Below are positions 45,462 through 64,000 of a stretch of DNA of 64,000 nucleotides, in pieces. Where the stretch lies: contig CAMLJY010000024.1 in the NCBI GenBank assembly GCA_946480465.1, positions 1 to 64,000 of the forward strand, read 5' to 3'. The first letter of the stretch is position 1. Each line of letters starts with the position of its first letter. Under the pieces are notes generated by a model, which was not told the DNA's origin, did no database searches, and worked only from the letters and a program-made list of their open reading frames with translations. A program made the translations under genes and the position numbers. Origin of the DNA: an uncultured Burkholderiales bacterium (lineage in GTDB: Bacteria; Pseudomonadota; Gammaproteobacteria; Burkholderiales; Burkholderiaceae).

Positions 45462-45998
45462 TCAGTGCATGCCGGGCGTGCCCATGGGCAGGAAGACGAC
45501 CCGGCGGGACGGCTGCGGCACCGACGATGACGGCACCGGCGCCGGCGCGGCAGCCTCGCCCGACCCCGGCGTGCCGCACACGCGCAGCATCGCACCCGCC
45601 ACCGCGTCCAGCTGCGCGGCGATGGCGCCGACGATGTCGTCGATCGACACCACGCCGGCCAGCTGCGCGTCGCCTTCCACCACCACCAGCCGGCGCACGC
45701 CGTACTGCAGCATCAGCTGCGCGGCCTGGTTCAGCTCGGCATCGGCGCGCACGGCCACCAGGCGGTGCCGTGCGATGTCGCCCACCCGCAAGGTCGGGAC
45801 GCTCGCTTCGCGCGTCAGACCTTCGAGCGCCAGGTCGCGGTCGGTGACGATGCCGGACACGCGGTGGCCGCCGTCCGCCTCGGACGTCACCACCAGCGCG
45901 CCCACCTCGTGCTCCCGCATCAGGTGAGCGGCCTCGGCCAGGCTGGCCGCGGCGTCGACGGTCACCGCGCCGCGGTGGCACAGGGTTCGGATGGACAT
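45462..45998 (-). CDS. CBS-domain pair protein
   Basis: A 178-residue cytoplasmic protein made of two CBS domains (residues about 5-65 with GALVVTSEADGGHRVSGIVTDRDL, and 72-125 with VRRLVVVEGDAQLAGVVSIDDIV). The Pro/Ser tail has no recognisable domain. CBS pairs bind adenosine nucleotides and sense energy state. Monocistronic; an FNR-like box lies 55 bases upstream of its ATG, suggesting induction under low oxygen or energy stress with the neighbouring Usp genes. Confidence 0.88.
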   Translation of the reverse strand: MSIRTLCHRGAVTVDAAASLAEAAHLMREHEVGALVVTSEADGGHRVSGIVTDRDLALEGLTREASVPTLRVGDIARHRLVAVRADAELNQAAQLMLQYGVRRLVVVEGDAQLAGVVSIDDIVGAIAAQLDAVAGAMLRVCGTPGSGEAAAPAPVPSSSVPQPSRRVVFLPMGTPGMH

Positions 45999-46053
45999 CG
46001 CCAGGCTCCGTGGATGAATGCGCCGATGTTCCGGCCGCGCCGCCCAAGGCGGC

Positions 46054-46067
46054 TTGCGCTGGCGCAA
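46054..46067 (-). promoter_or_regulatory. FNR-like box, CBS gene promoter
   Basis: TTGCG-CTGG-CGCAA, flanked by C and G so the dyad is 6+6. A possible -10 GAACAT lies 22 bases downstream on the minus strand (46026-46031). Confidence 0.55.
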
Positions 46068-46155
46068 GCGGCAGGACCCTGGCGGGCGGGCGCCGGCCGT
46101 GCACCGACCGGGACCCGCGCCCAGCAAGCGCCGGCCGCGTGCGGCAAGCCGCCCC

Positions 46156-46169
46156 TTGCGCCCGCTCAA
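46156..46169 (+). promoter_or_regulatory. FNR-like box, alcohol dehydrogenase promoter
   Basis: TTGCG-CCCG-CTCAA. A -10-like CAGAAT (46191-46196) lies exactly 21 bases downstream. It would start transcription almost at the ATG (46204), so a leaderless mRNA is possible. Confidence 0.5.
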
Positions 46170-46203
46170 GCGCATGGCGCGGCAGCGCCGCAGAATCAAC
46201 CGC

Positions 46204-47193
46204 ATGCAGGCGATGGTTGCACTCCAGCCGCGGGCCCCTTTGGTGCTGCAGCAGCGGCCCACGCCCGTGCCGGGACCGCAGGAACTGCGCCTGCGCGTGC
46301 TGGCGTGCGCCGTCTGCCGGACCGACCTGCACGTGGTGGACGGCGACCTGCCGCAGGCGCGCTACCCGGTCGTGCCCGGGCACGAGGTGGTGGGCATCGT
46401 CGAAGCGGTCGGGCCGGGCGTGGCGCCGGGGATCGTCGGCCGACGCGTCGGCCTGCCCTGGCTCGGCGGCACCTGCGGCCGCTGCCCCTACTGCCTGGAC
46501 GGCCGGGAGAACCTGTGCGACGCGCCCGAGTTCACCGGCTGCACGCGCGACGGCGGCTTCGCGACCCACGTGATCGCCCGCGCCGACTACTGCCTGCCGC
46601 TCGAGGGCCTGCCCGCCGATGCGGCGCAGGTGGCTCCCCTGCTCTGCGCCGGGCTGATCGGCTGGCGCACCCTGCGCGCCGCCGGTGATGGGGCGCGCTC
46701 GCTGGGCTTGTACGGCTTCGGCGCCGCGGCCCACCTCGTCGCGCAGGTGGCGCGGCACGAGGGCCGGCGCATCGCCGCCTTCACACGTCCGGGGGACGGC
46801 ACGGCGCAGGAGCTGGCGCGCCGCCTCGGCGCGCACTGGGCCGGCGGCAGCGACCAGCCGCCGCCGGAGCCGCTGGACGCGGCGCTGATCTTCGCGCCCA
46901 CGGGCGCCCTGGTGCCGCAGGCGCTGGCCGCGGTGCGCAAGGGCGGCTGCGTCGTCTGCGGCGGCATCCACATGAGCGACCTGCCCTCGTTCCCGTACCG
47001 ACTGCTGTGGGAAGAGCGGCAGCTGCGCTCGGTGGCCAACCTGACGCGCAGCGACGGACACGCCTTCCTCGCCCACGCGGCGCGGCATCCGCTGGACGTT
47101 CACTTCACGACTTATCCGCTGCAGCAGGCCAACCGGGCGCTGGACGACCTGCGCGACGGCCACGTCAGCGGCGCCGCGGTGCTCGTGCCCTGA
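46204..47193 (+). CDS. Zinc-dependent alcohol dehydrogenase
   Basis: A 329-residue MDR-family dehydrogenase. Catalytic zinc ligands: Cys in CAVCRTDLH and His-Glu in PGHEVVGIV. The structural-zinc cysteines are in GTCGRCPYCLDGRENLCD. The nucleotide-binding region LGLYGFGAAAHLVAQV has an alanine in place of a usual glycine of GxGxxG. It resembles the short AdhA-like enzymes that oxidise or reduce simple alcohols. The ATG at 46204 begins the conserved part. It is divergent from the CBS gene, each with its own FNR-like box. Confidence 0.9.
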   Translation: MQAMVALQPRAPLVLQQRPTPVPGPQELRLRVLACAVCRTDLHVVDGDLPQARYPVVPGHEVVGIVEAVGPGVAPGIVGRRVGLPWLGGTCGRCPYCLDGRENLCDAPEFTGCTRDGGFATHVIARADYCLPLEGLPADAAQVAPLLCAGLIGWRTLRAAGDGARSLGLYGFGAAAHLVAQVARHEGRRIAAFTRPGDGTAQELARRLGAHWAGGSDQPPPEPLDAALIFAPTGALVPQALAAVRKGGCVVCGGIHMSDLPSFPYRLLWEERQLRSVANLTRSDGHAFLAHAARHPLDVHFTTYPLQQANRALDDLRDGHVSGAAVLVP

Positions 47194-47259
47194 GCGCGCA
47201 CGGTCGCGGTAGCGCGCGGACCGGCGCATCGGCCGGCGCCTTGCTGCACAGAAGCGGGG

Positions 47260-47694
47260 TCAGGTCGCCACCAGCACCGGCACCTTCGACAGCGCCAGCA
47301 CCGCCTGCGTCTGGCTGCCCAGCAGCATCGACGCGAGGGCGCCGCGCCCGCGCGTGGCCATCACGATCAGGTCGTGGTGGTCGCGCTCCGCGGTGTCGAC
47401 GATCTCCCGGCTCGGAGACTCCGCGGTGCGCACCAGGCGCGTGATGCGCTCGGCCCGCTCGCCCTGGCGCGCCAGCGCCTCGTCGAGCCGCCGGCGGGCC
47501 TGTTCCAGCGCGGTCTCGGTCAGCCCGGCGTGGCCGGCGCGCCCCAGGCCCATCTCGCCGAATTCGGTCGCAGCAGGGTCGGCCACCACCATCAGCGCGG
47601 ACACGCGTCCCTTGGGCGCCACGCTCAGCGCCAACGCCACCGCCTTGTCGGCATGCTCCGATCCATCCGTTGCCACCAGCACGTTCTCGAACAT
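47260..47694 (-). CDS. Universal stress protein (UspA family)
   Basis: A 144-residue Usp. It starts MFENVLVATDGSEHADKAVALAL with the nucleotide-binding Asp. It ends with the ATP motif ATRGRGALASMLLGSQTQAVL (G-x2-G-x9-G-S) and VPVLVAT. A single domain, intact. An FNR-like box lies 60 bases upstream. Its closest local relative is the truncated copy at 48907-49086, whose ends and promoter match this gene. Confidence 0.93.
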   Translation of the reverse strand: MFENVLVATDGSEHADKAVALALSVAPKGRVSALMVVADPAATEFGEMGLGRAGHAGLTETALEQARRRLDEALARQGERAERITRLVRTAESPSREIVDTAERDHHDLIVMATRGRGALASMLLGSQTQAVLALSKVPVLVAT

Positions 47695-47753
47695 CGCCGT
47701 TCCTTCGTCAGTCGGGGATGCGGCCACTGTGGCACCGCCGGTGCGGCGCCGGC

Positions 47754-47767
47754 TTGCGCCACCGCAA
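47754..47767 (-). promoter_or_regulatory. FNR-like box, Usp promoter
   Basis: TTGCG-CCAC-CGCAA, a perfect dyad with flanking C/G. A -10-like CACAGT (47726-47731) lies 22 bases downstream on the minus strand. The same CACAGT follows the box of the truncated Usp copy at 49146-49159. Confidence 0.6.
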
Positions 47768-47842
47768 GGTGAAGGGTGAGGCACGCCGCCGTGCACGGGC
47801 GCCCGCGCGGAGCTGCCGGTCTCAGGCGCTGTTCGCGGCTTC

Positions 47843-48910
47843 TCAGGGCCCTGGCGAGGCTGCCCGCACGGCCGGGCTCGACGGCCGCGGCCAGGCATCC
47901 GGCAGCGTCAGCCGCAGGTACTGGCCGTCGCGGAAGACGGCCAGCCGCGTGCCGGCCGTGCGCCGCCACTGCAGCAGCGCCAGGGCCAGGTCGGCGCTGC
48001 CCGCGACGAGCTGGCCGTCGAAGCCGACGATGATGTCGCCGGACCGCAGCCCCGCCGCTTCCGCCTGGCTGTTCACCGCCACCAGGTCCACCAGCGCACC
48101 ATGCGTGTGGGCACGGCCGAGCGCCAAGGCCTCGCCGGGCGTCAGGTCGTGGAACTCGGCACCCAGGCGCGGCCGCTCGATGGGGCCGGCTTGCAGTTCG
48201 CGCGCCACCTGCAGCACCACCTCGATCGGCACCGACAGGCTGACGCCCGGCGAGCCGGCGCTGGCGACCACCGTGCGCACGTTCAGGCCCACGATGGCCC
48301 CTTCGGCGTCGACCAGCGGGCCGCCGGAGTTGCCGGGGTTCAGGGCCGCGTCGCTTTGGATATAGCTCATCACCGGTTCGTCGGCGAAGTGCCGGCGCGT
48401 GCCGCCGACGACCCCGGCCGAGACCGAGTGGGCCAGGCCATAGGGTTCGCCCAGCGCCAGCACCCAGTCGCCGGCGCGCAGCGCGGTCGCCCGGCCGAAG
48501 GCCGGCAGCACGGGCGGTGCCACCGGCAGGCGGATCAGCGCGATGTCGGAGGCTTCGTCGCTGCCCAGCACCTCGGCCACGTGGATGCGGCCATCGGACA
48601 TCTTCACCGCCACGCGGCGGCTGCGTTCGACCACGTGCGCCGCGGTGACGGCCAGGCCGCGGCCATCGATGAAGAAGCCCGAGCCGACGCGGGCCACGCC
48701 GCCCAGGTCGCGCCGGCCGCCGGGCTGGTCCTCCAGCGGATCACCGTCCATTCCATAGACGCCAAAGGACACGGGGCCGGCGCGCTCCACCGCGGCGGCG
48801 AAACCGGGCAGCAGCGGAGCCGCCACCGCCGGTCCGGCCAGCGCGGCCACGCACAACGCGGCCACGCACAGCGCCGCCGCGGCCAGACAACGGCGGCGGC
48901 CGTGCCTCAA
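47843..48910 (-). CDS. HtrA/DegP-like serine protease with PDZ domain
   Basis: A 355-residue exported S1C protease. The signal peptide contains two direct copies of CVAAL and ends near GPAVAA. The catalytic triad is His in AVTAAHVVE, Asp in ASDIALIRL and Ser in NPGNSGGPLV. One PDZ domain (about residues 255-335, with LRSGDIIVGFDGQLV) follows. The start is TTG overlapping the TGA of the truncated Usp gene (TTGA); no better start precedes the signal peptide. It should degrade or refold damaged periplasmic proteins and appears to be driven from the Usp promoter upstream. Confidence 0.88.
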   Translation of the reverse strand: MRHGRRRCLAAAALCVAALCVAALAGPAVAAPLLPGFAAAVERAGPVSFGVYGMDGDPLEDQPGGRRDLGGVARVGSGFFIDGRGLAVTAAHVVERSRRVAVKMSDGRIHVAEVLGSDEASDIALIRLPVAPPVLPAFGRATALRAGDWVLALGEPYGLAHSVSAGVVGGTRRHFADEPVMSYIQSDAALNPGNSGGPLVDAEGAIVGLNVRTVVASAGSPGVSLSVPIEVVLQVARELQAGPIERPRLGAEFHDLTPGEALALGRAHTHGALVDLVAVNSQAEAAGLRSGDIIVGFDGQLVAGSADLALALLQWRRTAGTRLAVFRDGQYLRLTLPDAWPRPSSPAVRAASPGP

Positions 48911-49086
48911 GGCGCCACCAGCACCGGCACTTTCGACAGCGACAGCACGCGTTGCTTCTGGCTGCCCGGCAGCGCGCCGGTCACCATGCGCGTCTTCGGA
49001 TCACCGTCCGCCATGCGCAGCGCGAGCGCGATCGCCTTGTCGGAATGCTTGGAGCCGTCGACGGCGACCAGGATGTGCCTGAACAT
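48907..49086 (-). pseudogene. Universal stress protein remnant with internal deletion
   Basis: Only 59 codons. The first about 32 (MFRHILVAVDGSKHSDKAIALAL) match the start of the Usp at 47260-47694. The last about 25 (GALPGSQKQRVLSLSKVPVLVAP) match its end, including the GSQ part of the ATP motif. The intervening roughly 85 residues are gone with the frame kept. The promoter and FNR-like box are conserved relative to the intact copy. It may survive only as a leader that couples translation to the HtrA gene, whose TTG start overlaps its stop. Confidence 0.8.
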
Positions 49087-49145
49087 GGTCGATCCCCAGG
49101 GGGTTGATGCTGCCGGCCACTGTGGCAGCACCACCGCCGGATCGA

Positions 49146-49159
49146 TTGACGAAGCGCAA
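49146..49159 (-). promoter_or_regulatory. FNR-like box, Usp remnant-HtrA promoter
   Basis: TTGAC-GAAG-CGCAA, one mismatch from the local pattern. CACAGT (49119-49124) lies 21 bases downstream. Distance to the ATG is 60 bases, the same as for the intact Usp copy. Confidence 0.5.
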
Positions 49160-49257
49160 GAAGGCGCCTTGCGGCGCCGCGACCACCCGGGGTCCCGGCA
49201 CGAGCGGGCACACCACGTCGCTCACCGTCCAGCACCGCGCCCGCCGACCACCCGAGC

Positions 49258-49271
49258 TTGCGCAATATCAA
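49258..49271 (+). promoter_or_regulatory. FNR-like box, Usp-Pat operon promoter
   Basis: TTGCG-CAAT-ATCAA, half canonical FNR (ATCAA) and half the local TTGCG variant. The -10-like AACAAT (49293-49298) is exactly 21 bases downstream, and the Usp ATG is at 49334. Confidence 0.62.
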
Positions 49272-49333
49272 GCTGCGCGAGGCCGCGCTGCGAACAATGC
49301 ACGTGGGTCACCCGCAGCAGAAAGGCAAAGACC

Positions 49334-49756
49334 ATGAAGATCCTCCTGGCCGTCGACGGCAGCACCTACACCAAGCACATGCTGGCCTACATCGCCGCGC
49401 ATGACGAACTGGTCGCCCCGTCGAACGAGTTCACGGCGCTGACGGTCGTGCCGCCGGTGCCGCCCCACGCCAGCCGCTTCCTGTCCCACTCCGTGCTGGA
49501 GGACTACTACCGCGACGAGGCGCAGCGCGTGCTCGAACCGGTGCGGCACTTCGCCGCGCAGCACGGCTGGAAGCTGCAGGCGCAGCAACTGGTCGGCCAG
49601 GCAGGCGATGCCATCGCCCAGTTCGCGGCCGAGGGCCGCTTCGACCTGGTCGTGCTCGGCTCGCATGGCCATTCCGCGCTCGCCAACGTCGTGCTCGGCT
49701 CGGTGGCCGCGCGCGTGCTGGCGCAGTGCAAGACGCCGCTGCTGATCGTGCGATGA
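49334..49756 (+). CDS. Universal stress protein (UspA family)
   Basis: A 140-residue single-domain Usp: MKILLAVDGSTYTKHMLAYI at the start, and VVLGSHGHSALANVVLGSVAARVL as the ATP-binding motif. It differs clearly from the two minus-strand Usp copies, so it is not a recent duplicate. The Pat-type gene follows 22 bases later on the same strand, suggesting one operon under the FNR-like promoter. Confidence 0.93.
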   Translation: MKILLAVDGSTYTKHMLAYIAAHDELVAPSNEFTALTVVPPVPPHASRFLSHSVLEDYYRDEAQRVLEPVRHFAAQHGWKLQAQQLVGQAGDAIAQFAAEGRFDLVVLGSHGHSALANVVLGSVAARVLAQCKTPLLIVR

Positions 49757-49778
49757 AGGCCCGGTCGAGGGCCTTCGC

Positions 49779-52430: not shown

Positions 52431-52495
52431 CGCGGCCGTCCGGGACGTCGCTCACGCCCCTGTCGAGGAGCATGAGCGAAAGGCTCCCGGGCTCT

Positions 52496-53854
52496 TCAGC
52501 CCAGGTCGATGCGCTCGCCGTCCTCCGGCACGCGGGCCGGCCAGCCGCAGCGCTCCTCGATGGCGAGCCGCAGCGCGTCGGCGGCGGCCGGCTCGCCGTG
52601 GTTCACCAGCACCTCGCGCGGGGCCGAGGGCAGGCGCTGCAGCCAGCGCAGCAGGCCCTCGCGGTCGGCATGCGCGGACAGCGACGCCATGGACACCACT
52701 TCCGCCCGCACCGGCACGTGCTGGCCGTGGATCTTCAGCGTCGTCGCCCCCGCCAGCAGCGCCGCGCCGCGCGTGCCGGGCGCCTGGAAGCCCGGCAGGA
52801 TGATGGTGTTGCGCGGGTCGCCCGCATACGCCACCAGGTGGTGCAGCACGCGGCCGCCGGTCAGCATGCCGCTGGCCGACACGATGACCGACGGCCACTT
52901 GAGGGCGTTCAAGCGCTTGGAATCCTCGACCGTCTCGACGATGCGGGTCCCGGCCGCGATGCGCTCGCAGTCCGCCTCGGACAAGCGGTGCAGTGCCGCC
53001 CAGCGCATGTACAGCCGCGTGGCGCTGGCCGCCATCGGGCTGTTCAGGTAGATCGGCAGGTCCGGGATGCGGTGCGCGGCCTTCAGCTGCTGCAGCGCGT
53101 GCAGCAGCACCTGCGCACGGCCGACGGCGAAGGCCGGGATCACGACGATGCCGCCACGGGCGGCGGTGCGGCCGATCGCGCCAGCGAGTCCGTCCAGCGC
53201 ATCCGCCGGGTCGTGCGACCGGTCGCCATAGGTCGACTCGACGATGACCAGGTCGGCCGCCACCGGCGGTTGCGGCGGGCGCATCAGGAGATCGTCGTCG
53301 CGGCCCAGGTCGCCGGAGAACAGCACCGACCGCTCTCCCGCCTGCAGGCGCACGCTCGCCGCGCCGAGGATGTGCCCGGCCGGGCGGAACGTCACCCGCA
53401 TGCCCGGGACCGGCTCGAAGGCCTCGTCGAAACCCTCGGGCTCGAAGCGCTCGAGCACGCGCAAGGCATCGTCCCGCGTGAACAGCGGCAGCGCCGGCCG
53501 GTGGCGCGAGAAGCCATGGCGGTTGGCATAGGCCGCCTCCTCTTCGAACAGGTGGCCGGCGTCGGCCAGCAGCAGGCGGCACAGGTCCAGCGTCGCGTGC
53601 GTCGCGTGCACCCGGCCCTTGAAGCCCAGCTTGGCCAGGCGCGGCAGGAAGCCGCTGTGGTCGAGGTGCGCATGCGTCAGCACGACGGCGTCGATCGAGT
53701 GCGCCGGCACCGGCAACTCGCGCCAGTTGCGCAGCCGCAGCTGCTTCACGCCCTGGAACAGCCCGCAGTCGACGAGCACGCGGCGGCCCCCGTGCTCGAC
53801 CAGGGTCTTCGAACCGGTGACGGTGCCGGTCGCACCGAGGAATTGGATCTGCAT
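52496..53854 (-). CDS. MBL-fold/beta-CASP metallo-hydrolase (RNase-like)
   Basis: A 452-residue protein. The metal site HAHLDHSG is at about residues 61-68. GHILGAASVRL, SGDLGRDDD and the C-terminal SLSAHADR complete the MBL-beta-CASP-RMMBL architecture of the CPSF73/YSH1-like family found in bacteria. Known relatives are endo- or exoribonucleases. It is often found in Usp islands. It runs convergent to the Pat gene and has its own FNR-like box 36 bases before the ATG. Confidence 0.9.
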   Translation of the reverse strand: MQIQFLGATGTVTGSKTLVEHGGRRVLVDCGLFQGVKQLRLRNWRELPVPAHSIDAVVLTHAHLDHSGFLPRLAKLGFKGRVHATHATLDLCRLLLADAGHLFEEEAAYANRHGFSRHRPALPLFTRDDALRVLERFEPEGFDEAFEPVPGMRVTFRPAGHILGAASVRLQAGERSVLFSGDLGRDDDLLMRPPQPPVAADLVIVESTYGDRSHDPADALDGLAGAIGRTAARGGIVVIPAFAVGRAQVLLHALQQLKAAHRIPDLPIYLNSPMAASATRLYMRWAALHRLSEADCERIAAGTRIVETVEDSKRLNALKWPSVIVSASGMLTGGRVLHHLVAYAGDPRNTIILPGFQAPGTRGAALLAGATTLKIHGQHVPVRAEVVSMASLSAHADREGLLRWLQRLPSAPREVLVNHGEPAAADALRLAIEERCGWPARVPEDGERIDLG

Positions 53855-53889
53855 GCGATCGACGCTAACGCCCGGCCGAGCCGGCCCGC

Positions 53890-53903
53890 TTGCGATAGCG
53901 CAA
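53890..53903 (-). promoter_or_regulatory. FNR-like box, MBL gene promoter
   Basis: TTGCG-ATAG-CGCAA with flanking C/G. TAGCGT (53862-53867) lies 22 bases downstream. The transcription start would be close to the ATG at 53854. Confidence 0.55.
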
Positions 53904-53923
53904 GCGCGGCGGTGCGCGGGCCT

Positions 53924-55144
53924 TCAGCGCCCGCCGCTGTCGTGCAGCCGCACCCGCGCCCCCGGCTGCAGCGCCGGGGGCGGATAGACGACCACCCGCG
54001 CCCCCGCGGCCAGGCCGCCACGCAGCCAGGCCTCGTTGCCGTTGCGCCCGCCCACGTCCACCCGCTGCAGCTGCGCCCGGCCCTCCTGCACGACGAACAC
54101 CGCCATGCCGCCGCTGCCGTCGTCGGCCACCGGGAACACCGCGCTCACCGGCACCAGCAGCGCGCCGTCCTGCACCACGGTGATCACGCGCACCGTGACG
54201 CGGAAGCCGTCGCCCAGCAGGCGCCACGGCGGCGGCGCGCGGTCCGGCGCCTCCAGGTCGATCAGCACCTTCACGCGCTGCTCCTCGACGCCGAGCGCGG
54301 AGACCTTGGTGAAGGCCGCCGGCTCGACCCGGCGCACCCGCCCCTGCAGCGGCACCGGCCCGCCCCAGCGCTCGATGGACACGCGGCTGCCGGGCACCGC
54401 CTGCAGCGCGTCGCTGGTCAGCAGCTCGGCCACCACCTCGAGGTCCGCCAGGTCGCCCAGCTCGATCAGCGGCGTGCCCAGCGCCACGCTGGCCTCGCTG
54501 TTCTGCAGCACGCGCAGCACGCTGCCGGCGATCGGCGAGCGCAGCGCGAAGGCCCGCCCCGCCGCCGGCTGCCGCACCGCGCCCAGCGCCGCGCGCGCCT
54601 GTTCCACGCCATGCGCGGCGACGCGCCGGTCGCCTGCGGCCGCCTCCAGCTCCTTCTGCGCCGCGGCCAACGCCAGCCGGTCCGCATCCAGCCGCGTCGG
54701 CGCCAGGAAGCCCTGCTGCGCCAGCTGCTCGCTGCGCAAGGCCTCGTTGGCCGCCTGCTGGCGCGCCACGCGGGCCCGCTCCAGGCGCGCATCGGCCCGC
54801 TGCACGGTCGCCTGCGCGATCTGCAACTGGGCCTCCTGCTCGCGCAAGGTGCGCTCGTCCACCAGCGGCGACAGCGCCGGCTCCAGCAGGGCGACCACCG
54901 CGCCCGCCGCCACCGCATCACCTTCGCGCAGCGCGATGCGCTGCACCCGGCCGGACAGCGGCGCCGACACCACGTAGCGCTCGCGCAGCCGGGTGCGGCC
55001 GTCTTCCTCGATCGCCGCCTCGAAGCGGCCCTGCCGGGCCACCGCGGTCTCCACCGCCAGCGGCCGCGGCGCGAAGGCCCAGGCCAGCAGCGCCCCCGCG
55101 GCCAGCACGGCGCCGGCCACCACGGCGAGCGTCGTCTTCTTCAT
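53924..55144 (-). CDS. HlyD/MacA-like periplasmic adaptor of ABC exporter
   Basis: A 406-residue membrane-fusion protein. N-terminal anchor MKKTTLAVVAGAVLAAGALLAW, then barrel-sandwich (VSAPLSGRVQRIALREGDAV), a long coiled-coil hairpin (about 95-190), the second lipoyl half (ALRSPIAGSVLRVL) and beta-barrel domain. It would bridge the ABC permease and an outer-membrane factor. The ATG at 55144 is preferred over the overlapping ATG at 55150 because GAGGGA is correctly spaced only for the former. It is the last gene of the three-gene ABC operon; no TolC-like gene is in the window. Confidence 0.9.
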   Translation of the reverse strand: MKKTTLAVVAGAVLAAGALLAWAFAPRPLAVETAVARQGRFEAAIEEDGRTRLRERYVVSAPLSGRVQRIALREGDAVAAGAVVALLEPALSPLVDERTLREQEAQLQIAQATVQRADARLERARVARQQAANEALRSEQLAQQGFLAPTRLDADRLALAAAQKELEAAAGDRRVAAHGVEQARAALGAVRQPAAGRAFALRSPIAGSVLRVLQNSEASVALGTPLIELGDLADLEVVAELLTSDALQAVPGSRVSIERWGGPVPLQGRVRRVEPAAFTKVSALGVEEQRVKVLIDLEAPDRAPPPWRLLGDGFRVTVRVITVVQDGALLVPVSAVFPVADDGSGGMAVFVVQEGRAQLQRVDVGGRNGNEAWLRGGLAAGARVVVYPPPALQPGARVRLHDSGGR

Positions 55145-55146
55145 GC

Positions 55147-57516
55147 TCATTCCCTCGTCTTGAGGACCGCCACCAGGTCGAGGCGGTCGATGCGCCGGCG
55201 CACCACCAGCGCGCTGGCCAGGCCCGCGGCCAGCACGCACAGCGCCGCCCAGGCGTAGGTGCGCGGCTGGATCGTGGCCGGGAACAGGAACTGGTCGGAG
55301 CGCAGCAGCTGGTTCACGCCGTGCACCAGCGCCCAGCCCGCGGCCATGCCCAGCGGCAGGGCGACCAGGATGGCCAGCGCCATCTCGCCCAGCAGCAGCG
55401 CCGACACCTCGGCGCGGGTGAAGCCCAGCACGCGCAGCGAGGCCAGCTCCCAGCCGCGCTCGGCCAGCGCGATGCGCGCGTTGTTGTAGACCACGCCCAC
55501 CGAGATCACCGCGGCGAAGGCGGTCAGCACCGTGCTCATGATGCGCACGTTGCGGGCGCTGATCTCCTCCATGTTGCGCAGCATCGTGGCCTTGCTGAAG
55601 GCACCGGCCGACCGCGGCAGCGCCTTGCTGGCTTCCAGCAGCGCCGCCTCGCGGCCGGGCTCCAGGCCCAGCACCCAGCCGCTGGAGACGTCGCCTTCGC
55701 CCAGCGCGCGGTTCAGCGCCCGGCGGTCCATGTAGGCGTTCAGTCCCATCATGTCGCGCACCGTGCCGCTGACCGTGATGGTCAGCGTGCGCGGCGCGCC
55801 CACCAGCACCTCGGCCTGCACGGCGTCGCCCACGCGCAGCCCCAGCTTGTCGGCCAGGCGGTCGGTCAGCACCAGGCCGCCGCCGTCGAGCAGGGTCTCG
55901 CGGCCGGCCACGTCGATCACGCGGTAGAGGTCCGGCCGCGCGGCGTAGCCGCGGATCAGGCCGCGCTCGCGGCGGTGCCCGTGCACCAGCGTGACCGGCA
56001 CGAAGCGCGTCGACTCGACCTGGCGCACACCCGGCAGCCGGGCCAGTTCCAGCCGCGCCGCATCGTCCACCGCGTCCACCGTCCACACCGTGACGTCGCC
56101 GCGCAGGCCCAGCTCGAACTGGGTGTGCACGATGGTGTCGATGGCGTCGCGGAAGAAGTTGCCCATGATGGTGATGGCCACCGCGGCGGCGATGCCGCCG
56201 ATGCCCATCAGCGTGCGCAGGGGCCGCCGCTCCATGTTGCGCACGATCATGCGCAGCGCCGGCGCCATGCGCTGCACGCCCAGGCGCTCCAGCAGCGTGC
56301 GGCGGTAGCGGCCGGGCGCCGGCGGCCGCATCGCCTCGGCCGGCGGCAGCCGCACGGTGGCGAGCACCGCGTTCAGCGTGCCCAGCACCGCGGTGACCAG
56401 CCCGACGCCGGCGCTGATGGCCACCAGCCCCGGCGCCAGCCGGTGCTGGAAGCGCGGGAACTGGAAGAACTCGGCGTACAGGCCGGTGAACATCGCGCCC
56501 AGCTGCCCGCCGAGCAGCAGGCCCAGCACCACGCCGGCCGCCACGATCAGCAGCACCAGCTTCAGGTAGTGCAGGCCGATGGCCAGGTCGGGGTAGCCCA
56601 GTGCCTTCAGCGCCGCGATCTGCTCGCGCTGCGTGCCCACCAGGCGCGAGATCACCACGTGCAGCAGGAAGGCGGCCACGCCCAGGAAGATCGCCGGCAG
56701 CACGGTGCCGATCACGCGCTGCTCCTTGATCTCGTTGTCCAGCATCTGGTGCGAGGCCTGCTCGGCCCGGCCGTGCACGTCGCGCCCGCCGTAGGGCGCG
56801 AGGCGGCGCGCCAGCGCGTCGATCGTGGCCTGCGCATCGGCCGCCGGCGCCAGGCGCACCGCCAGCTTGTTGAAGGCGCCGTCCATGTCGTAGGCGGCCG
56901 CGAGCACGCGCCGGTCGAGCCAGAACACGCCGTAGCCGCGCATGTCCGGCATGCCCCAGAGGCCGGCGAAGACGAACTCCGGCGACAGCGCCAGGCCGCT
57001 GATGCGCAGCGTGCGCAGGCGCCCGTTGAGCTGGGCCTGCAGCTCGTCGCCGGGCTTCAGCCCGCGCGCCAGCGCGAAGCCGCGCGAAACCAGCACCGGG
57101 ATGCGCTGGTCGCCGGCGCCTTCGTCGGCGCTGAGCATGCGGCCCGCGGCCACGTCGACGCGGTTCAGGCGCTGCGCCTGCTGCAGGTCCAGCCCGATCA
57201 GCTGGCCGATCACCGGGTCGGAGACGCCGGGCAGGGTCACCCGCACCATCGCCTCCTGGCCGGTCTGCACGTCGGCCACGCCGGGCAGTTCGCGCAGCGT
57301 GCTTTCCAGCGCCTGCGGCGCGCGCTTCAGGCTGGCGAACACGTCGGCGAAGCGGCCGGCGGCGTAATAACTGTCACGTGCAGCGGCCAGCGAATCGACC
57401 GCCGACAGGCTGGTCACGAAGCCGGCGATGCCGGCGGCGACCACCAGCGCGATGGTCAGCGCCTGGCTCCACAGCAGCCGCAGGTCGCGCCACAGCTTGC
57501 GGTCCAGCGCCTTCAT
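55147..57516 (-). CDS. ABC transporter permease (double FtsX, MacB/DevC-like)
   Basis: A 789-residue permease with two FtsX units. It has an N-terminal membrane segment (about 18-38), a large periplasmic domain, three central segments (from TVLPAIFLGVAAFLLHVVISRL, about 275-400), another (GIGGIAAAVAITIMGNFF, about 445), a second periplasmic domain and three C-terminal segments. GTQREQIAALKALGYPD and ERGWELASLRVLGFTRAEV are the two coupling-helix regions. The ATG at 57516 begins the conserved LWRDLRLLWSQALTIALVVAAG. With the ATPase and adaptor genes it forms a drug or lipid exporter of unknown cargo. Confidence 0.9.
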   Translation of the reverse strand: MKALDRKLWRDLRLLWSQALTIALVVAAGIAGFVTSLSAVDSLAAARDSYYAAGRFADVFASLKRAPQALESTLRELPGVADVQTGQEAMVRVTLPGVSDPVIGQLIGLDLQQAQRLNRVDVAAGRMLSADEGAGDQRIPVLVSRGFALARGLKPGDELQAQLNGRLRTLRISGLALSPEFVFAGLWGMPDMRGYGVFWLDRRVLAAAYDMDGAFNKLAVRLAPAADAQATIDALARRLAPYGGRDVHGRAEQASHQMLDNEIKEQRVIGTVLPAIFLGVAAFLLHVVISRLVGTQREQIAALKALGYPDLAIGLHYLKLVLLIVAAGVVLGLLLGGQLGAMFTGLYAEFFQFPRFQHRLAPGLVAISAGVGLVTAVLGTLNAVLATVRLPPAEAMRPPAPGRYRRTLLERLGVQRMAPALRMIVRNMERRPLRTLMGIGGIAAAVAITIMGNFFRDAIDTIVHTQFELGLRGDVTVWTVDAVDDAARLELARLPGVRQVESTRFVPVTLVHGHRRERGLIRGYAARPDLYRVIDVAGRETLLDGGGLVLTDRLADKLGLRVGDAVQAEVLVGAPRTLTITVSGTVRDMMGLNAYMDRRALNRALGEGDVSSGWVLGLEPGREAALLEASKALPRSAGAFSKATMLRNMEEISARNVRIMSTVLTAFAAVISVGVVYNNARIALAERGWELASLRVLGFTRAEVSALLLGEMALAILVALPLGMAAGWALVHGVNQLLRSDQFLFPATIQPRTYAWAALCVLAAGLASALVVRRRIDRLDLVAVLKTRE

Positions 57517-57541
57517 GCGGCCTGCCCCGCGGCGGCGTGCC

Positions 57542-58261
<720 letters not shown>

Positions 58262-58288
58262 TTGTCCGTCATGCCGCCGCCGCGGCGC

Positions 58289-58302
58289 TTGACCGCGGTC
58301 AA
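58289..58302 (-). promoter_or_regulatory. Possible FNR-like box, ABC exporter operon
   Basis: TTGAC-CGCG-GTCAA is a perfect 14-base palindrome just before the ABC operon and overlapping the last codons of the P-type ATPase gene. It departs from the local pattern at one position in each half, and its spacing to a -10 (GACAAA at 58261-58266) would place the start inside the first codons. Confidence 0.35.
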
Positions 58303-60818
58303 ACGAGGGCATCCGGGCCCGCCGCGGTCCGCCGCGCGCTGCGCAGCGACCACAGCCGCAGCACAGCCCATGCCGCCGGCAGGGCCGGAACGAGGGCCCA
58401 CGGGGCGAGCCCGAGCGGCAGCCCGAAGGCGCGCGCCGCCCAGGGCACGGCCAGCAGGGCGGCGCAGACGGCGCCCAGCACGGCCAGCAGCGTCAGATAA
58501 ACCGGATTGGACGCGTCATGGTCGCGCGCCGAACCGCGGAACCAGCGCAGCAGCAGCAGGTTGCCGCCGACGATGGCCGCCAGCACCAGCAGCCGCAGCT
58601 GCTCCACCGCCGCGCCGGCCAGCGCCCCCAGCGCATAGGCGCCCGCGACGCCGGCGAACGCGATGGCCCCGGCGGCGAGCGCACGCAGGGCGGCCGGCAG
58701 CGCGAACAGCCGTTCGGACGCCGGCCGCGGCGGCACCCGCATGGCGTCGTCCGGCGGCGGCTCGGCCTCGAAGACCAGCGAGCAGGCCGGGTCGATGATC
58801 AGTTCGAGCAGCACCACGTGCAGCGGCAGCAGCAGCACCGGCCCGCCCACCAGCAGCGGAATCATCGAGACGCCGACGATGGGCACGTGCACGGCAAACA
58901 GGTAGCCGAGCGACTTGCGCAGATTGGCGAAGATGCGCCGCCCGCCGGCCACGCCCTGCACCAGGGCGCCGAAGTCGTCGTCGAGCAGCACCAGCGAGGC
59001 GGCCTCGCGCGCCACGTCCGTGCCGCGCCGTCCCATCGCCACGCCGACGTCGGCCGCGCGCAGCGCCGGCGCATCGTTGACGCCGTCGCCGGTCATCGCC
59101 ACCACGGCACCCTGCGCCTGCAGCGCGCGCACCAGCCGCAGCTTCTGCGCCGGCGCGATGCGGGCGAACACGCTGGCCCGCGGCAGGCGCGCGGCCAGCT
59201 CGGCATCGCCCAGGCGCGCCAGCTCGGCCCCGGTGATGACCGTGCCGTCGCCGTCGATCAGGCCCGCCTGGTGCGCGATGGCCCGCGCGGTCGCCGGCGC
59301 GTCGCCGGTGATCATCACGACGCGCATGCCGGCCGCGCGGCAGGCGGCGATGGCCGCGGGCACTTCGGCGCGCAGCGGGTCCTGGAACACCAGCAGGCCG
59401 AGGGCTTCGAGCGCGGTGCGCGGCAGGCGGTCGTCGGGCAGCGGGCCGGACGCGGCGGCGTGCGCCACCGCGAGCACGCGCCGGCCTTCGGCGCTGAAGG
59501 CCTCGGCGGCCTCGCGCAGCGCGGCCAGCCGCGCCGGCGCATCGGCGCACAGCGCCAGCACCGCTTCGGGCGCGCCCTTGACCACCACCCGGCCCTCGCC
59601 CGCCGCGCCGGCCCACCAGTGCACGACGTAGGGCCGCCCTTCGCCGGTGCCGACGTGCGCCGCCATCGTCCAACCGGCACGGCCGGCGCGGCGCGCACCC
59701 CGCGCGGCGAGGATGGCGCGGTCCATCGGCTCCACCGGCTGCGGGCTGCAGGCCAGGGCCGCCGCATCCAGCAGCGCCTGCAGCGGCGGCGCCAGGGCCG
59801 CATCCGGGGCGGCCGCGGCCGTTCCGTCGTGCAGGCGTTCGAGCGTCATGCGGTTGTGCGTCAAGGTGCCGGTCTTGTCGACGCAGAGCACGCTGACGGT
59901 GCCCAGCGCCTCGATCGCCTGCGGCTGCCGCGTCAGCACCCGCACCTGCGCCAGCCGCCACGCGCCGAGCGCGAGCATCACGCTCCACACGACCGCGAAC
60001 TCCTCGGGAATCAGCGACATCGCCAGCGTCAGCCCGACGATGAGGCCGGTGGTCCACGAGCCCTCGCGCCAGCTGTAGAGCAGCACCGCCACCAGGCAGG
60101 TGGCGGCGGCCATCAGCGCGACGATGCGCACCAGCCGCTTCAGCTCGCGCTGCAGGCGGCTGGGCCGCGCCGCCATCTGCCGCAGCGAGCCGCCGATGCG
60201 GCCGAGCGCGGTGTAGGCGCCGGTGGCGCAGACGATGGCCAGGCCGTCGCCCTGCACCACCAGGCTGCCGGCATGCAGCACCGTGGCATCGCTTGCTTCG
60301 AGCGAACTACCGCCCGCGGCGGCGGCCGCGCCGCCGGCACCGGCGCGCTTGTCCACCGGGACCGATTCACCGGTCAGCAGCGATTCATCGACGCGCAGGC
60401 CGCTGCACTCGACGATGCGCGCATCGGCAGCCAGGCGATCGCCCTCGGCGACGAGCAGCCGGTCGCCGCGCACCAGCTCCTCGCTGGCGATCTGCACCGT
60501 CGCCCCGTCGCGCAGCACCCGGCAGCGCGGGCTCGACAGGTCGGCCAGCGCATGCAGCACGCGCTCGCTGCGCTGCTCCTGCCAGATCGCGAGCGCCGCC
60601 ACCGCCAGCACCGAGACGCCGAGCAGCGCCGCGTCCTGCAGCTCGCCGACCGCGGCATAGACGCTGGCCGCGGCCAGCAGCAGCAACAGCATCGGCTGCG
60701 TCAGCGCTTCCCAGGCGATGCGGACCAGGCCGCGGCGGTCGGCCCGCGGCAGGCGGTTCGGCCCGTCCCGGCGCCGCTGCGCCTCCACCTGGGCCCGGGT
60801 CAGTCCTGGGTCGGACAT
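58299..60818 (-). CDS. P2-type cation-transporting ATPase
   Basis: An 839-residue P-type ATPase. The actuator motif is [11 protein letters not shown], phosphorylated Asp314 lies in [24 protein letters not shown] is the nucleotide site, and [11 protein letters not shown] the hinge. Eight to ten membrane segments and a cation-ATPase N-terminal domain are present; there is no heavy-metal CxxC domain. It resembles Ca/Mg/Na-type P2 pumps; the ion is unclear. ATG at 60818 begins the cation-ATPase N-terminus ([19 protein letters not shown]). The start overlaps the 3' end of the hybrid kinase gene by 19 bases, so both are one operon. Confidence 0.92.
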
Positions 60819-62515
60819 GGGGTGAGGGCTGGCCGCGAACCATCGGCCTGGCGCACGGGGCACGGCGGCCCGCCGCCCGCAGCGGCGGCGGCCGGCGTTT
60901 CCGGCCCGGCCCGGCGCGCCAGGTGGCGACCGACGACGTCAGCCAGCGTCGCGAGGTCGAAGGGCTTGGCGATCACCTCGTCGATGCCCGCGGCGAGGCA
61001 GGCGGCCCGGCTGTCGGACAGCACGTTGGCCGTGACGGCGAGCAGCGGCACCCCGCCGCCGTGGGGCAAGGCCCGGATGCGCCGGGCGGCCGACATGCCA
61101 TCCAGGCGCGGCATGTGCATGTCCAGCAGCACCAGGTCATAGCAGCCGCCGGCGAACAGCTCGAGCGCCTCCTGGCCATCCGCCGCGACGTCGGGGACGA
61201 TGCCCAGCCGGCGCAGCGCGGCCACCGCGATCTCGCGGTTGACGGCATCGTCCTCGGCCAGCAGCACCCGCGCACCGGGAAACTGCGCCGGCGGCACCGT
61301 GGCCGCCGGTGCGCCGGCGTCCACCGGCGCGCCGGCACGCACCAGCCGGGCGGTGAACCAGAAGGTGCTGCCCGCCCCCGGCGTGCTGCAGGCGCCCGCT
61401 TCGCCGCCCATCAGCATCGCCAGGCGCCGCGTGATGGCCAGCCCGAGGCCGGTGCCGCCGTAGCGGCGCGTGATCGTGTTGTCGGCCTGCTCGAACGGAT
61501 GGAACAGGCGCTGCAGCACCTCCGGCGCAATGCCCGGCCCGGTGTCGCCGACCTCGAAGCGGACCAGCAGGCCCTGCTCGTTCTCGTCCACCGGCAACAC
61601 GCGCAGGCTGACCTCGCCCGCGTCGGTGAACTTCACCGCATTGGCCGCGTAGTTCAGCAACGCCTGCTGCAGCCACGTGCGGTCACCGCGCAGTCGGCCG
61701 GCCACCCCGCCGCGGTCCACCGACAGTCGCAGTCCCTTGTCGTGCGCCGACTGCTGCACCATGCCGGCCACGGCCTGCAGCACGGCGTCCAGCTCGAACA
61801 CCGTCTCCTCGGGTTCGTACTGGCCGGCCTCGATCTTCGACAGGTCGAGGATCGCGTTGACCACGTCCAGCAGGTGGCGGCCGGCGCGCTCGATCTTGGC
61901 CAGCCGGTCCTGCTGCTCCGGCGTCACGCCGGCGTCGACGATCAGTTCGGCCATGCCGATGATCGCGCCCAGCGGCGTGCGGATCTCGTGCGTCATGTTG
62001 GCCAGGAACGCGCTCTTGGCCTTGCTGGCCGCTTCGGCCTGCGCCTTGGCCTGCGCCAGTTCGGCGGTGCGGTCCGCCACCAGTTGCTCCAGGTGGTCGT
62101 GGTGCGCCTGCAGCGCCATCGCCAGCCGCTTGCGCTCGGTGATGACGTCGAAGATCGCGACGAAGTGATCGCGCCGTGGACTGAACACCTCGATCGCGAA
62201 CCACTGCTGCAGCGCCTGGACCCAGGTCTCGAAGCGCTCGGGCGCGCCGCCCGCGGCCACGCGCCCGTAACGCTCGAGCAGCGCGGCATCGCTCTCGCGC
62301 AGGTTCGGAATGAGCGTGCTGACCGCCCGGCCGGCCGCATCGGCAATGCCGGTCTGGCGATGGAAGGCGGGGTTGGTGTAGAGGTAGACGAAGTCGACCG
62401 GGCGCCCGTCCTCGTAGAGCATGCGGCAAAAGGCAACCCCGTTCATCGTGTGCTCCAGCACGCTGCGCAGCGTGCCGGCATCCATCGAGACAGGTTCGCG
62501 GCCGTCCTGAGTCAC
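60800..62515 (-). CDS. Soluble hybrid sensor histidine kinase
   Basis: About 571 residues, no membrane segment. Order: PAS-like domain (about 10-125, [19 protein letters not shown]), coiled coil, HisKA with His176 in [11 protein letters not shown], HATPase ([27 protein letters not shown]), and a receiver with Asp465 in [13 protein letters not shown]. Its partner is not in the window. Start: GTG at 62515 has GGAAGAG upstream; ATG at 62539 and 62569 are possible in frame, but 62569 lies upstream of the transcription start predicted from the FNR-like promoter. It probably reports cytoplasmic redox or energy state. Confidence 0.88.
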
Positions 62516-62586
62516 GACTCTTCCTTCGCCGCTCGGCATCGGGGGATCGGGGGTGCTGCATTCGACCATCGGGCGCCGTCCGCGCC

Positions 62587-62600
62587 TTGCGCGGAATCAA
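62587..62600 (-). promoter_or_regulatory. FNR-like box, hybrid kinase promoter
   Basis: TTGCG-CGGA-ATCAA. A good -10, TCGAAT (62560-62565), lies exactly 21 bases downstream on the minus strand, so transcription should begin near 62553. Confidence 0.62.
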
Positions 62601-62658
62601 GCCGGGGCGGCCCCGTGCGGCGGCGGCAGGAAAAAGCGCCGCGGCCACCGGCCAGGGG

Positions 62659-62672
62659 TTGATGGCCATCAA
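62659..62672 (+). promoter_or_regulatory. Consensus FNR/ANR box, Usp promoter
   Basis: TTGAT-GGCC-ATCAA is a perfect match to the FNR/ANR consensus and a full palindrome. The -10-like TAGCCT (62694-62699) is 21 bases downstream. The tandem Usp ATG is at 62755. Confidence 0.8.
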
Positions 62673-62754
62673 GCGCACGGCGCCGGGCGGGACTAGCCTG
62701 CGGTCTTCGGCGCGATGCCGCGCGCACGCCATTCCCCCTTTGACGGAGCCGTCC

Positions 62755-63633
62755 ATGACCGAACCCACCCCGCCCAACCGCATCCTCGTCGCCACCGACC
62801 TCAGTGCGCGCTGCGACCGTGCCGTCGCGCGGGCCGCGCAGCTGGCCCGCGCCTGGCACAGCGCGCTGGTCGTGGCGCACGTCGTCCATGCCGCCGAGGT
62901 CGCGCGGCGCGACCAGCTGGCCGGCTCCGCGCCCTCGTGGCGCCGCCCCGAATCGTGGGCCCAGACGCTGCAGCGCACGCTCGGCGCCGACCTCGATGCC
63001 GAAGGCATCGCCGCCACGGCCAGGGTCGTGATCGGCGCGCCGGCGGCCGCGGCGGTGCAGCAGGCGCTGGCCGATGAGGGGGCCGGCCTGGTGGTGCTGG
63101 GGGTCGCGAAAGACGCGCGCATGGACCGCATCCAGCTCGGCAGCACCGTGGACACGCTGGTGCGCCATTCCCGCGTGCCGGTGCTGAACGTGCGCGGCCG
63201 CGCCCGCGCCGCCTACCGTCACGTGGTGGTGGCCACGGACTTCTCCGCGCCCGCGCTGCAGGCCCTGCGCCTGGCGGCGCACTGGTTCCCGGGCGCGCGC
63301 CTGTCGCTGTTCCATGCCTACGTGCCCCCGGGCACGATGCTCGGCAACGGCGCCGCCGCGGACGATGCCTGGCGCGCCGCGGCCACGCAGGAGTGCACCG
63401 CGCACCTGGCCGAGGCCGCGCTGCCCGCCCCGGTCCTGGCCAGCCTGCAGCGGGTGATCGAGCGCGGGCAGCCGGAAGTCCTTCTGCCGGACTACGTCGC
63501 CAGCACCGGGGCCGATCTCGTCGTGCTGGGCTCGCAGGGGCGCAGCGGCCTCGCCCGCGCGCTGCTCGGCAGCACGGCGGAAAACCTGCTGCACGTGCTG
63601 GACTGCGACACCCTGGTCGTTCGCGGTGACTGA
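62755..63633 (+). CDS. Tandem-domain universal stress protein
   Basis: A 292-residue protein with two Usp domains: residues 8-146 (RILVATDLSARCDRAVARAA, ending VPVLNVRG) and 153-292 (HVVVATDFSAPALQALRLAA, ending DCDTLVVRG). The second half keeps the ATP motif GSQGRSGLARALLGSTAENLL; the first has a changed version (GVAKDARMDRIQLGSTVDTL). The upstream FNR consensus box suggests oxygen-dependent expression. The next gene overlaps its end by eight bases. Confidence 0.92.
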   Translation: MTEPTPPNRILVATDLSARCDRAVARAAQLARAWHSALVVAHVVHAAEVARRDQLAGSAPSWRRPESWAQTLQRTLGADLDAEGIAATARVVIGAPAAAAVQQALADEGAGLVVLGVAKDARMDRIQLGSTVDTLVRHSRVPVLNVRGRARAAYRHVVVATDFSAPALQALRLAAHWFPGARLSLFHAYVPPGTMLGNGAAADDAWRAAATQECTAHLAEAALPAPVLASLQRVIERGQPEVLLPDYVASTGADLVVLGSQGRSGLARALLGSTAENLLHVLDCDTLVVRGD

Positions 63634-64000
63634 TGCAGGCTGCCGCGGCCGGGACGCGCATCGCTGGCCGGCGCCGGACCGCGAGGTCGACGGCGCCGAG
63701 CCGGTGTGGCATGCGCTGCAGGCCGCGCAGGTGCTGCGCCACTTCGGGGCCGATGCCCGGCAGGGCCTGGGCGCACCCGAGGTGCGGCGCGCCCAGGAAC
63801 GGCACGGTCCCAACGCCTTGCCGGAGCCACCGCCACGATCGCGGTGGCGCACCCTCGCCCGGCAGTTCAAGAGCCCGCTGATCTACATCCTCTTCGTCGC
63901 CGCGGTGCTCGCGGTGGCACTGGGGCACCGCGGCGATGCGCTGGTGATCCTCGCCGTGGTGCTGGTCAACGCCCTGATCCCAGGAAGGCCGCGCCGAGCG
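63626..64000 (+). CDS. P-type cation ATPase, N-terminal part (cut by window edge; possible frameshift)
   Basis: The reading frame from GTG 63626 gives a P-type ATPase N-terminus: VWHALQAAQVLRHFGADARQ, RRAQERHGPNALPEPPP, then FKSPLIYILFVAAVLAVALG and DALVILAVVLVNALI. After about 63980 the expected continuation (IGFIQEGRAER) is broken. The bases encoding QEGRAER are present but in another frame, and about three residues before them are missing. This may be a true frameshift or a sequence error near the end of the window. If intact it would be a second P-type pump of the island. Confidence 0.72.
   Translation, partial: MTDAGCRGRDAHRWPAPDREVDGAEPVWHALQAAQVLRHFGADARQGLGAPEVRRAQERHGPNALPEPPPRSRWRTLARQFKSPLIYILFVAAVLAVALGHRGDALVILAVVLVNALIPGRPRRA

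What the first reader, a model, noticed from the sequence alone, without database searches (positions are those of the whole stretch)
45462..62755. A regulon of stress genes sharing an FNR-like box at fixed spacing
Eight intergenic boxes fit or nearly fit TTG(A/C)(G/T)-N4-(A/C)(G/T)CAA: 46054, 46156, 47754, 49146, 49258, 53890, 62587 and 62659. Each is oriented to one gene, with a -10-like hexamer 21-22 bases beyond the box, as in class II FNR promoters. One (62659) is a perfect TTGAT-N4-ATCAA, two are hybrids with one ATCAA half, and the commonest half-site is TTGCG. This suggests either an FNR/ANR protein tolerant of TTGCG or a second Crp/Fnr regulator with shifted specificity.
Basis: partly seen in the sequence, partly recalled or inferred. 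Interest (0 to 1): 0.8.

Follow-up and report, generated by a model that had tools for sequence, protein, structure and literature searches.

The report
FNR/FixK-type stress regulon in Burkholderiales
A cluster of bacterial stress genes shares one low-oxygen-type switch sequence in front of each gene or operon; the switches look real and belong to a known kind, and gene neighbourhoods in relatives point to a little-studied cousin of the oxygen sensor FNR as a likely reader.

Summary
All eight boxes are at the stated coordinates, lie between genes, and have their best -10-like hexamer 21 or 22 bases beyond the box. A ninth box (58289), before an ABC-FtsX-HlyD operon, was missed. Relatives in Burkholderiales show the same architecture: 34 directed boxes peak at the same gap. 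The enriched half-sites are TTGAT, TTGAC, TTGAG and TTGCG, a set already printed for Bradyrhizobium FixK2, whose regulon has similar genes (Usp, CBS, MBL, HlyD-ABC, ppsA). So this is an FNR/FixK-type class II regulon: a new member of a known kind.

Which protein reads it is open: the window has no Crp/Fnr gene and no genome is held for it. Relatives carry Fe-S FNR and a cysteine-less FNR-type group ("class B") that often sits in the same islands. TTGCG sites are mostly intergenic in nine genomes with class B (25 of 33) but not in four without it (4 of 20), which favours class B. Against this, several whole-genome counts do not separate the two sets, and TTGCG promoters exceed controls without class B too. 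Oxygen response was not tested.

The parts
46054..46067 (-). box TTGCG/CGCAA, directed to the CBS-domain gene
   Evidence: -10-like GAACAT at gap 22
46156..46169 (+). box TTGCG/CTCAA, directed to the Zn alcohol dehydrogenase gene
   Evidence: CAGAAT at gap 21; boxes before the orthologous gene in close relatives
47754..47767 (-). box TTGCG/CGCAA, directed to Usp1
   Evidence: CACAGT at gap 22
49146..49159 (-). box TTGAC/CGCAA, directed to the 59-aa mini-Usp and the trypsin/PDZ protease gene behind it
   Evidence: CACAGT at gap 21
49258..49271 (+). hybrid box TTGCG/ATCAA, directed to Usp2 and the acyl-CoA ligase-GNAT gene
   Evidence: AACAAT at gap 21
53890..53903 (-). box TTGCG/CGCAA, directed to the MBL/beta-CASP gene
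   Evidence: TAGCGT at gap 22
58289..58302 (-). ninth box TTGACCGCGGTCAA, directed to ABC-FtsX-HlyD; weakest -10 (ACAAAT at gap 23)
   Evidence: boxes upstream of the orthologous ABC gene in L194 (9629) and L204 (16390), 2 of the 5 loci that hold it beside ADH
62587..62600 (-). hybrid box TTGCG/ATCAA, directed to the sensor kinase-REC gene and the P-type ATPase gene behind it
   Evidence: TCGAAT at gap 21
62659..62672 (+). perfect TTGAT/ATCAA box, directed to the double Usp gene
   Evidence: TAGCCT at gap 21
45462..45998 (-). CBS-domain protein
   Evidence: PF00571, gene
46204..47193 (+). zinc alcohol dehydrogenase (start codon unsure; my finder took 46243)
   Evidence: PF08240; orthologues
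47260..47694 (-). universal stress protein Usp1
   Evidence: PF00582
47843..48865 (-). trypsin-like/PDZ protease
   Evidence: PF13365, PF13180
48907..49086 (-). 59-aa mini-Usp (N- and C-terminal parts of a Usp)
49334..49756 (+). universal stress protein Usp2
   Evidence: PF00582
49779..52430 (+). acyl-CoA ligase (ADP-forming type) fused to a GNAT domain
   Evidence: PF13549, PF13607, PF13302
52496..53854 (-). MBL-fold beta-CASP/RMMBL hydrolase
   Evidence: PF10996, PF07521
53924..58252 (-). ABC transporter operon: HlyD 53924-55144, FtsX 55147-57516, ATPase 57542-58252
58299..60818 (-). P-type cation ATPase
   Evidence: PF00122, PF00689
60800..62515 (-). histidine kinase with receiver domain
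   Evidence: PF00512, PF02518, PF00072
62755..63633 (+). double universal stress protein Usp3
   Evidence: PF00582, two stretches

Best explanation
The window holds a low-oxygen/energy-stress island in which nine gene or operon starts carry class II Crp/Fnr promoters: a dimer of an FNR/FixK-type activator binds a 14-bp palindrome centred near -41.5, next to a poor -10, and activates RNA polymerase. Shown: position, spacing, intergenic enrichment, and the half-site set TTG(AT, AC, AG, CG) in the window and its relatives. Since class B lacks the four cluster cysteines, it would not sense oxygen as FNR does but would be governed through its own expression or its neighbours, as FixK2 is by FixLJ.
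For: Window statistics. Relatives: 15 loci chosen by the ADH orthologue, one per genome, have 35 intergenic and 10 coding sites with both halves in {CG,AT,AC,AG}, against 7 and 16 for all other halves (Fisher p=2e-4). 34 directed boxes in 19 loci: TANNNT at gap 21 in 12, gap 22 in 3, one each at gaps 24 and 43, none elsewhere from 5 to 44 (shuffles). Class B: none of the 120 best homologues has CxxCx4-7C in its first 80 residues; Trp stands at the place of FNR Cys122 in all 95 resolved; LE[ST]VSR helix in 111 of 120. It is encoded in the ADH island in Variovorax L004 and L012 and in L202 and near Usp genes in Azohydromonas. In the 16 genomes searched for both ADH and Usp, 9 of 14 class B genes but 2 of 23 other FNR-type matches lie within 30 kb of such a hit (my tally; Fisher p=6e-4). 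TTGCG-bearing sites: 25 of 33 intergenic in nine class B genomes, 4 of 20 in four genomes without it (p=1.4e-4). TTGCGC class II promoters: 36 in 224 Mb with class B (0 control), 49 in 625 Mb without (11 control), rate p=0.002; 12 of the 36 lie within 20 kb of the class B gene, about 0.3 expected.
Against: No genome is held for the window, so class B is not shown in its owner. Counts over whole genomes do not separate the sets: TTGCG/CGCAA against control 92/57 with class B and 26/19 without; TTGCG/ATCAA 155/13 and 43/5 (my sums). TTGCG promoters exceed controls without class B too (189 against 87; 49 against 11). The 4 of 20 rests on four genomes, 11 of the sites being from Caldimonas. Genomes are related, so p-values are optimistic; coding calls come from a home-made gene finder. 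Only 23 of 108 ADH loci have a TTG[AC]-N6-[GT]CAA within 300 bases upstream, so the box is not a fixed companion of the gene. Half-sites AA, TG and TT also lean intergenic, on 5 cases to 1.
Confidence: 0.6

Rival explanations
1. Ordinary Fe-S FNR (ANR) alone reads all nine boxes and simply tolerates TTGCG; high G+C pressure turned TTGAT into TTGCG at tolerated positions.
For: R. sphaeroides FnrL at TTGCGcaggATCAA; TTGCG promoters exceed controls in genomes without class B; raw enrichments do not differ; Fe-S FNR and class B share the LE[ST]VSR helix.
Against: In four genomes without class B, TTGCG-bearing sites are intergenic in only 4 of 20. In the G122 tiles TTGA/TTGA sites are intergenic in 16 of 26 but TTGCG-bearing ones with an accepted partner in 6 of 22.
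Confidence: 0.27
2. Heterodimers of two FNR paralogues read the hybrid boxes, as proposed for Herbaspirillum Group III promoters.
For: Hybrid sites at uspA genes are published there (PMC5934665, passages); AT/CG is the commonest intergenic pair in island loci (12 of 42).
Against: In 21 directed mixed sites of relatives the CG half is gene-distal in 8 and gene-proximal in 13, so there is no fixed orientation; three of the window's boxes are TTGCG on both sides.
Confidence: 0.06
3. The palindromes belong to a regulator outside the Crp/Fnr family.
For: The regulator is not in the window; TTGCGC-NN-GCGCAA taken alone is an unspecific-looking palindrome.
Against: Half-sites interchange with TTGAT/TTGAC and the class II gap recurs in 34 directed sites.
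Confidence: 0.04
4. Chance palindromes in G+C-rich DNA.
For: Single TTGCG/CGCAA matches are common in coding DNA of relatives (9 of 17 sampled).
Against: 9 against 0.3 expected; -10 spacing; recurrence before orthologous genes in close relatives.
Confidence: 0.01

Closest known systems
FixK2 regulon of Bradyrhizobium diazoefficiens (PMC9104804; passages and table rows seen)
   Different: Alphaproteobacterium; class B matches FNR chains in the PDB far better than FixK2 (E 2e-26 against 9e-14); no FixLJ link shown here; the target genes were not compared by sequence.
FNR/FnrL regulons (R. sphaeroides, PMC2908626; passages seen)
   Same: uspA and hemN targets; TTGAT/TTGAC sites and one TTGCG site.
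   Different: The FnrL sites in the passage are mostly TTGAT/TTGAC; here TTGCG is commonest.
Herbaspirillum seropedicae Fnr1/Fnr3 (PMC5934665; passages seen)
   Same: Betaproteobacterium, several FNR paralogues, hybrid boxes, uspA targets, class II site at -42 before fnr1.
   Different: The paper speaks of conserved cluster cysteines in Fnr1 and Fnr3; its motif difference is at other positions and has a fixed orientation.
lxa locus of Burkholderia cenocepacia (described in PMC9104464; passages seen)
   Same: A locus of metabolism, stress and transport genes with six Usp genes, induced at low oxygen.
   Different: Not compared gene by gene here; the one Burkholderia genome searched (G008) gave only matches of 35-39% identity to class B, two of its three showing the N-terminal cysteine motif.

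Membership tests
Class II Crp/Fnr promoter | box followed by a -10 about 21-22 bases beyond | tested here: met
   8 of 8 reader sites, weak at 58289; 15 of 34 directed relatives have TANNNT at gap 21 or 22
Class II Crp/Fnr promoter | transcription start about 41.5 bases from the box centre | not testable with these tools
   needs transcript ends
FixK2/FNR-type regulon | TTG(A/C)-N6-(G/T)CAA boxes concentrated between genes | tested here: met
FixK2/FNR-type regulon | dependence on an FNR/FixK protein and on low oxygen | not testable with these tools
   no expression data; regulator outside the window
Fe-S FNR (class B protein of relatives) | three N-terminal cysteines plus Cys122 | tested here: not met
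   0 of 120 with the N-terminal motif, Trp at 122 in 95 of 95 resolved; 3 of 3 below the NCBIfam Fnr cut-off, 118-124 of 228 bits
Fe-S FNR (class B protein of relatives) | E-x-x-S-R recognition helix | tested here: met
   LE[ST]VSR in 111 of 120
FixK equivalog (NCBIfam) | score over the cut-off of 300 bits | tested here: not met
   60-72 bits in 3 class B proteins
lxa locus | orthologous gene content and induction at low oxygen | not tested
   the J2315 locus was not fetched

The most novel reading that the evidence does not exclude
Burkholderiales carry a separate, cysteine-less FNR subfamily (class B) that has widened half-site recognition to TTGCG and runs dedicated stress islands (Usp, ADH, CBS, MBL hydrolase, ABC operon, PEP synthase) beside its own two-component system, so that one box code splits the FNR regulon into an oxygen-sensing part and a part open to other signals.
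Probability: 0.4. Interest if true: 0.65.

Novelty: new member of a known kind. Interest (0 to 1): 0.45.

Why it matters
It gives a concrete, testable target list and a candidate reader for a Usp-rich stress island in an environmental Burkholderiales lineage, and suggests how one FNR-type box code may be shared between an oxygen sensor and a cysteine-less paralogue. The class II geometry recovered from raw sequence (gap 21, TANNNT) also makes a compact genome-scan signature.

Tried and rejected
Own-genome scan: impossible, no genome is held.

G122 as a stand-in genome (2.0 of 4.39 Mb of its main contig): a poor stand-in, it prefers TTGAG/TTGAT and lacks class B; kept as the case without class B.

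The search tool's own control (pattern read backwards) holds TAG or CTA for the TTGAT-bearing patterns and is probably biased low; I leaned on intergenic/coding splits instead.

Usp3 loci: 12 of 30 were dropped because my script did not turn minus-strand hits; of the 18 left, 4 had a box within 250 bases upstream and 0 downstream. Weak, not used further.

First half-site table held duplicate genomes and loci chosen by box; redone without them. Boxes near Fe-S FNR and near class B in 3-kb loci are too few to lean on. A first tally of gene linkage (11 of 17 against 1 of 15) left out rows; the recount over the 16 genomes searched for both genes is 9 of 14 against 2 of 23. The two paralogue groups separate in a tree, but the fork is under the strong-support mark and long branches are flagged.

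Literature: searches listed no paper that I recognised as describing the class B group; this is no proof of absence, as most subscription journals are missing. The original lxa paper was not read.
Full report
Observation. All eight boxes exist at the stated positions, lie between genes by my own gene finder, and have their best -10-like hexamer at gap 21 or 22 within gaps 15 to 29. Strict matches number 9 in the window, two of them coding; order-2 Markov sequences give 0.3 on average. The mean -10 score at gaps 21/22 is 2.81 for the eight against 0.93 in shuffles, none of 5000 as high. Of all TTGNN-N4-NNCAA sites, 9 of 13 are intergenic in 4043 intergenic bases; the ninth is 58289 TTGACCGCGGTCAA, before ABC-FtsX-HlyD. 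Its -10 is weak. Of five loci that hold the ABC orthologue beside ADH, two (L194, L204) have a box upstream of it; a third box, in L202, falls inside a called gene.

Genes. Pfam scans give CBS protein, zinc alcohol dehydrogenase, Usp1, trypsin/PDZ protease, a 59-aa mini-Usp, Usp2, acyl-CoA ligase-GNAT, MBL/beta-CASP hydrolase, HlyD, FtsX, ABC ATPase, P-type ATPase, kinase-receiver hybrid and a double Usp. Overlaps and short gaps suggest mini-Usp with the protease, Usp2 with the ligase, and the kinase with the P-type ATPase as operons (inference). None of the 53 genes called in the window matches a Crp/Fnr family.

Relatives. The ADH orthologue brought 80 loci, the best from Azohydromonas (72%); a family search found further genomes. 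Boxes stand 65 to 72 bases before the ADH in four of the five genomes with the most similar ADH (L111-L114, not L115), and TTGCGCAGGCTCAA stands 72 bases before it in L120. Over all loci the box is the exception: 23 of 108 have TTG[AC]-N6-[GT]CAA within 300 bases (2 of 110 dropped for lack of sequence, three genomes counted twice). In 15 ADH-chosen loci, one per genome, sites with both halves in {CG, AT, AC, AG} split 35 intergenic to 10 coding, all others 7 to 16. Per half, intergenic/coding: CG 28/10, AT 20/7, AC 15/4, AG 12/8; AA 2/1, TG 2/0, TT 1/0, CA 1/6, CC 1/6, GG 1/4, CT 1/3, GC 0/2, GT 0/1. So the well-supported half-sites form a defined set that includes TTGCG. In 34 directed boxes from 19 loci TANNNT falls at gap 21 in 12 and gap 22 in 3, otherwise twice between gaps 5 and 44.

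Known data. FixK2 of Bradyrhizobium has the box TTG(A/C)-N6-(T/G)CAA, and its target table shows all four half-sites and similar gene types: Usp, CBS, MBL hydrolase, ABC ATPase-permease-HlyD, ppsA (PMC9104804, passages). R. sphaeroides FnrL was found at TTGCGcaggATCAA (PMC2908626, passage). Herbaspirillum has hybrid FNR boxes at uspA genes (PMC5934665, passages). An lxa locus with six Usp genes is induced at low oxygen in B. cenocepacia (PMC9104464, passages). The regulon is therefore a new member of a known kind.

Among 30 Crp/Fnr loci of eight relatives are Fe-S FNR (CxxC motif, Cys122, LETVSR) and a second FNR-type group without the cysteines ("class B", my label). Of its 120 best homologues none has the N-terminal motif, Trp replaces Cys122 in all 95 resolved, and LE[ST]VSR is kept in 111. 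Class B falls below the NCBIfam Fnr cut-off and matches FNR better than FixK2 in the PDB. In Variovorax L004 and L012 and in L202 it lies in the ADH island; in the Variovorax loci the MBL orthologue is there too. In Azohydromonas, L004, L012 and L202 two genes related to kinase/receiver proteins lie near it; domains were checked only in Azohydromonas: an OmpR-type regulator and a PAS-GAF kinase. In the 16 genomes searched for both ADH and Usp, 9 of 14 class B genes and 2 of 23 other FNR-type matches lie within 30 kb of such a hit (my tally).

Does TTGCG go with class B? For: TTGCG-bearing sites, as cut out by the search tool, are intergenic in 25 of 33 in nine class B genomes, 3 of 12 in four genomes without it; eight further Caldimonas sites add 1 of 8, making 4 of 20 (p=1.4e-4). 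In G122 tiles, without class B, TTGA/TTGA sites are 16 of 26 intergenic, TTGCG-bearing ones with an accepted partner 6 of 22, others 43 of 246. Over 200 family genomes, 42 with a class B match at E up to 1e-45, TTGCGC class II promoters number 36 in 224 Mb (control 0) against 49 in 625 Mb (control 11), and 12 of the 36 lie within 20 kb of the class B gene; two of these are one divergent palindrome. Against: counts do not separate the sets (92/57 and 26/19; 155/13 and 43/5); a looser promoter pattern gives 90 against 16 with class B and 189 against 87 without, the raw rates not differing (p=0.22), the excess over control giving one-sided p=0.027. TTGAT-type promoters do not differ. Genomes are related. 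So class B is favoured, not proven, and Fe-S FNR probably shares sites.

Mechanism. Shown: box code, spacing, promoter location. Inferred: activation by class II contact; low-oxygen or energy-stress input; class B controlled through its expression or neighbours, since it lacks cluster ligands. The CG half has no fixed orientation (8 gene-distal, 13 gene-proximal), which speaks against an oriented heterodimer.

Odds.

Noticed in passing
window 48907-49086: Mini-Usp of 59 aa: it reads like the first ~27 and last ~30 residues of a Usp with the middle ~80 missing, frame intact and with its own box; Usp1 nearby looks like its full-length relative.
   Followed up: partly
window 46156, 53890, 58289: Three boxes end only 34-36 bases before the assigned start codon, so class II geometry would predict leaderless or nearly leaderless mRNAs for ADH, MBL and ABC; start codons are unsure.
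   Followed up: no
window 1-35500: Exopolysaccharide/exosortase cluster: glycosyltransferases, UDP-sugar dehydrogenase, EpsH-type exosortase, Wzz/GNVR, Poly_export, polysaccharide deacetylases, asparagine synthase, PEP-CTERM protein, sigma-54 activator and TPR protein.
   Followed up: partly
window 40293-41555: Protein joining an N-acyl amino acid synthase (FeeM) domain to a PilZ domain.
   Followed up: no
window 63626-64000: A second P-type ATPase gene begins right behind the double Usp and runs off the window, so the island probably continues.
   Followed up: no
G122 tiles (L205-L304): This genome without class B favours TTGAG half-sites (AG/AG 5 intergenic, 1 coding), as if box preference drifts between lineages.
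   Followed up: no
G036:C103:40266-40333: One TTGCGC palindrome with a class II -10 on both sides, 18 kb from the class B gene: a possible divergent double promoter.
   Followed up: no
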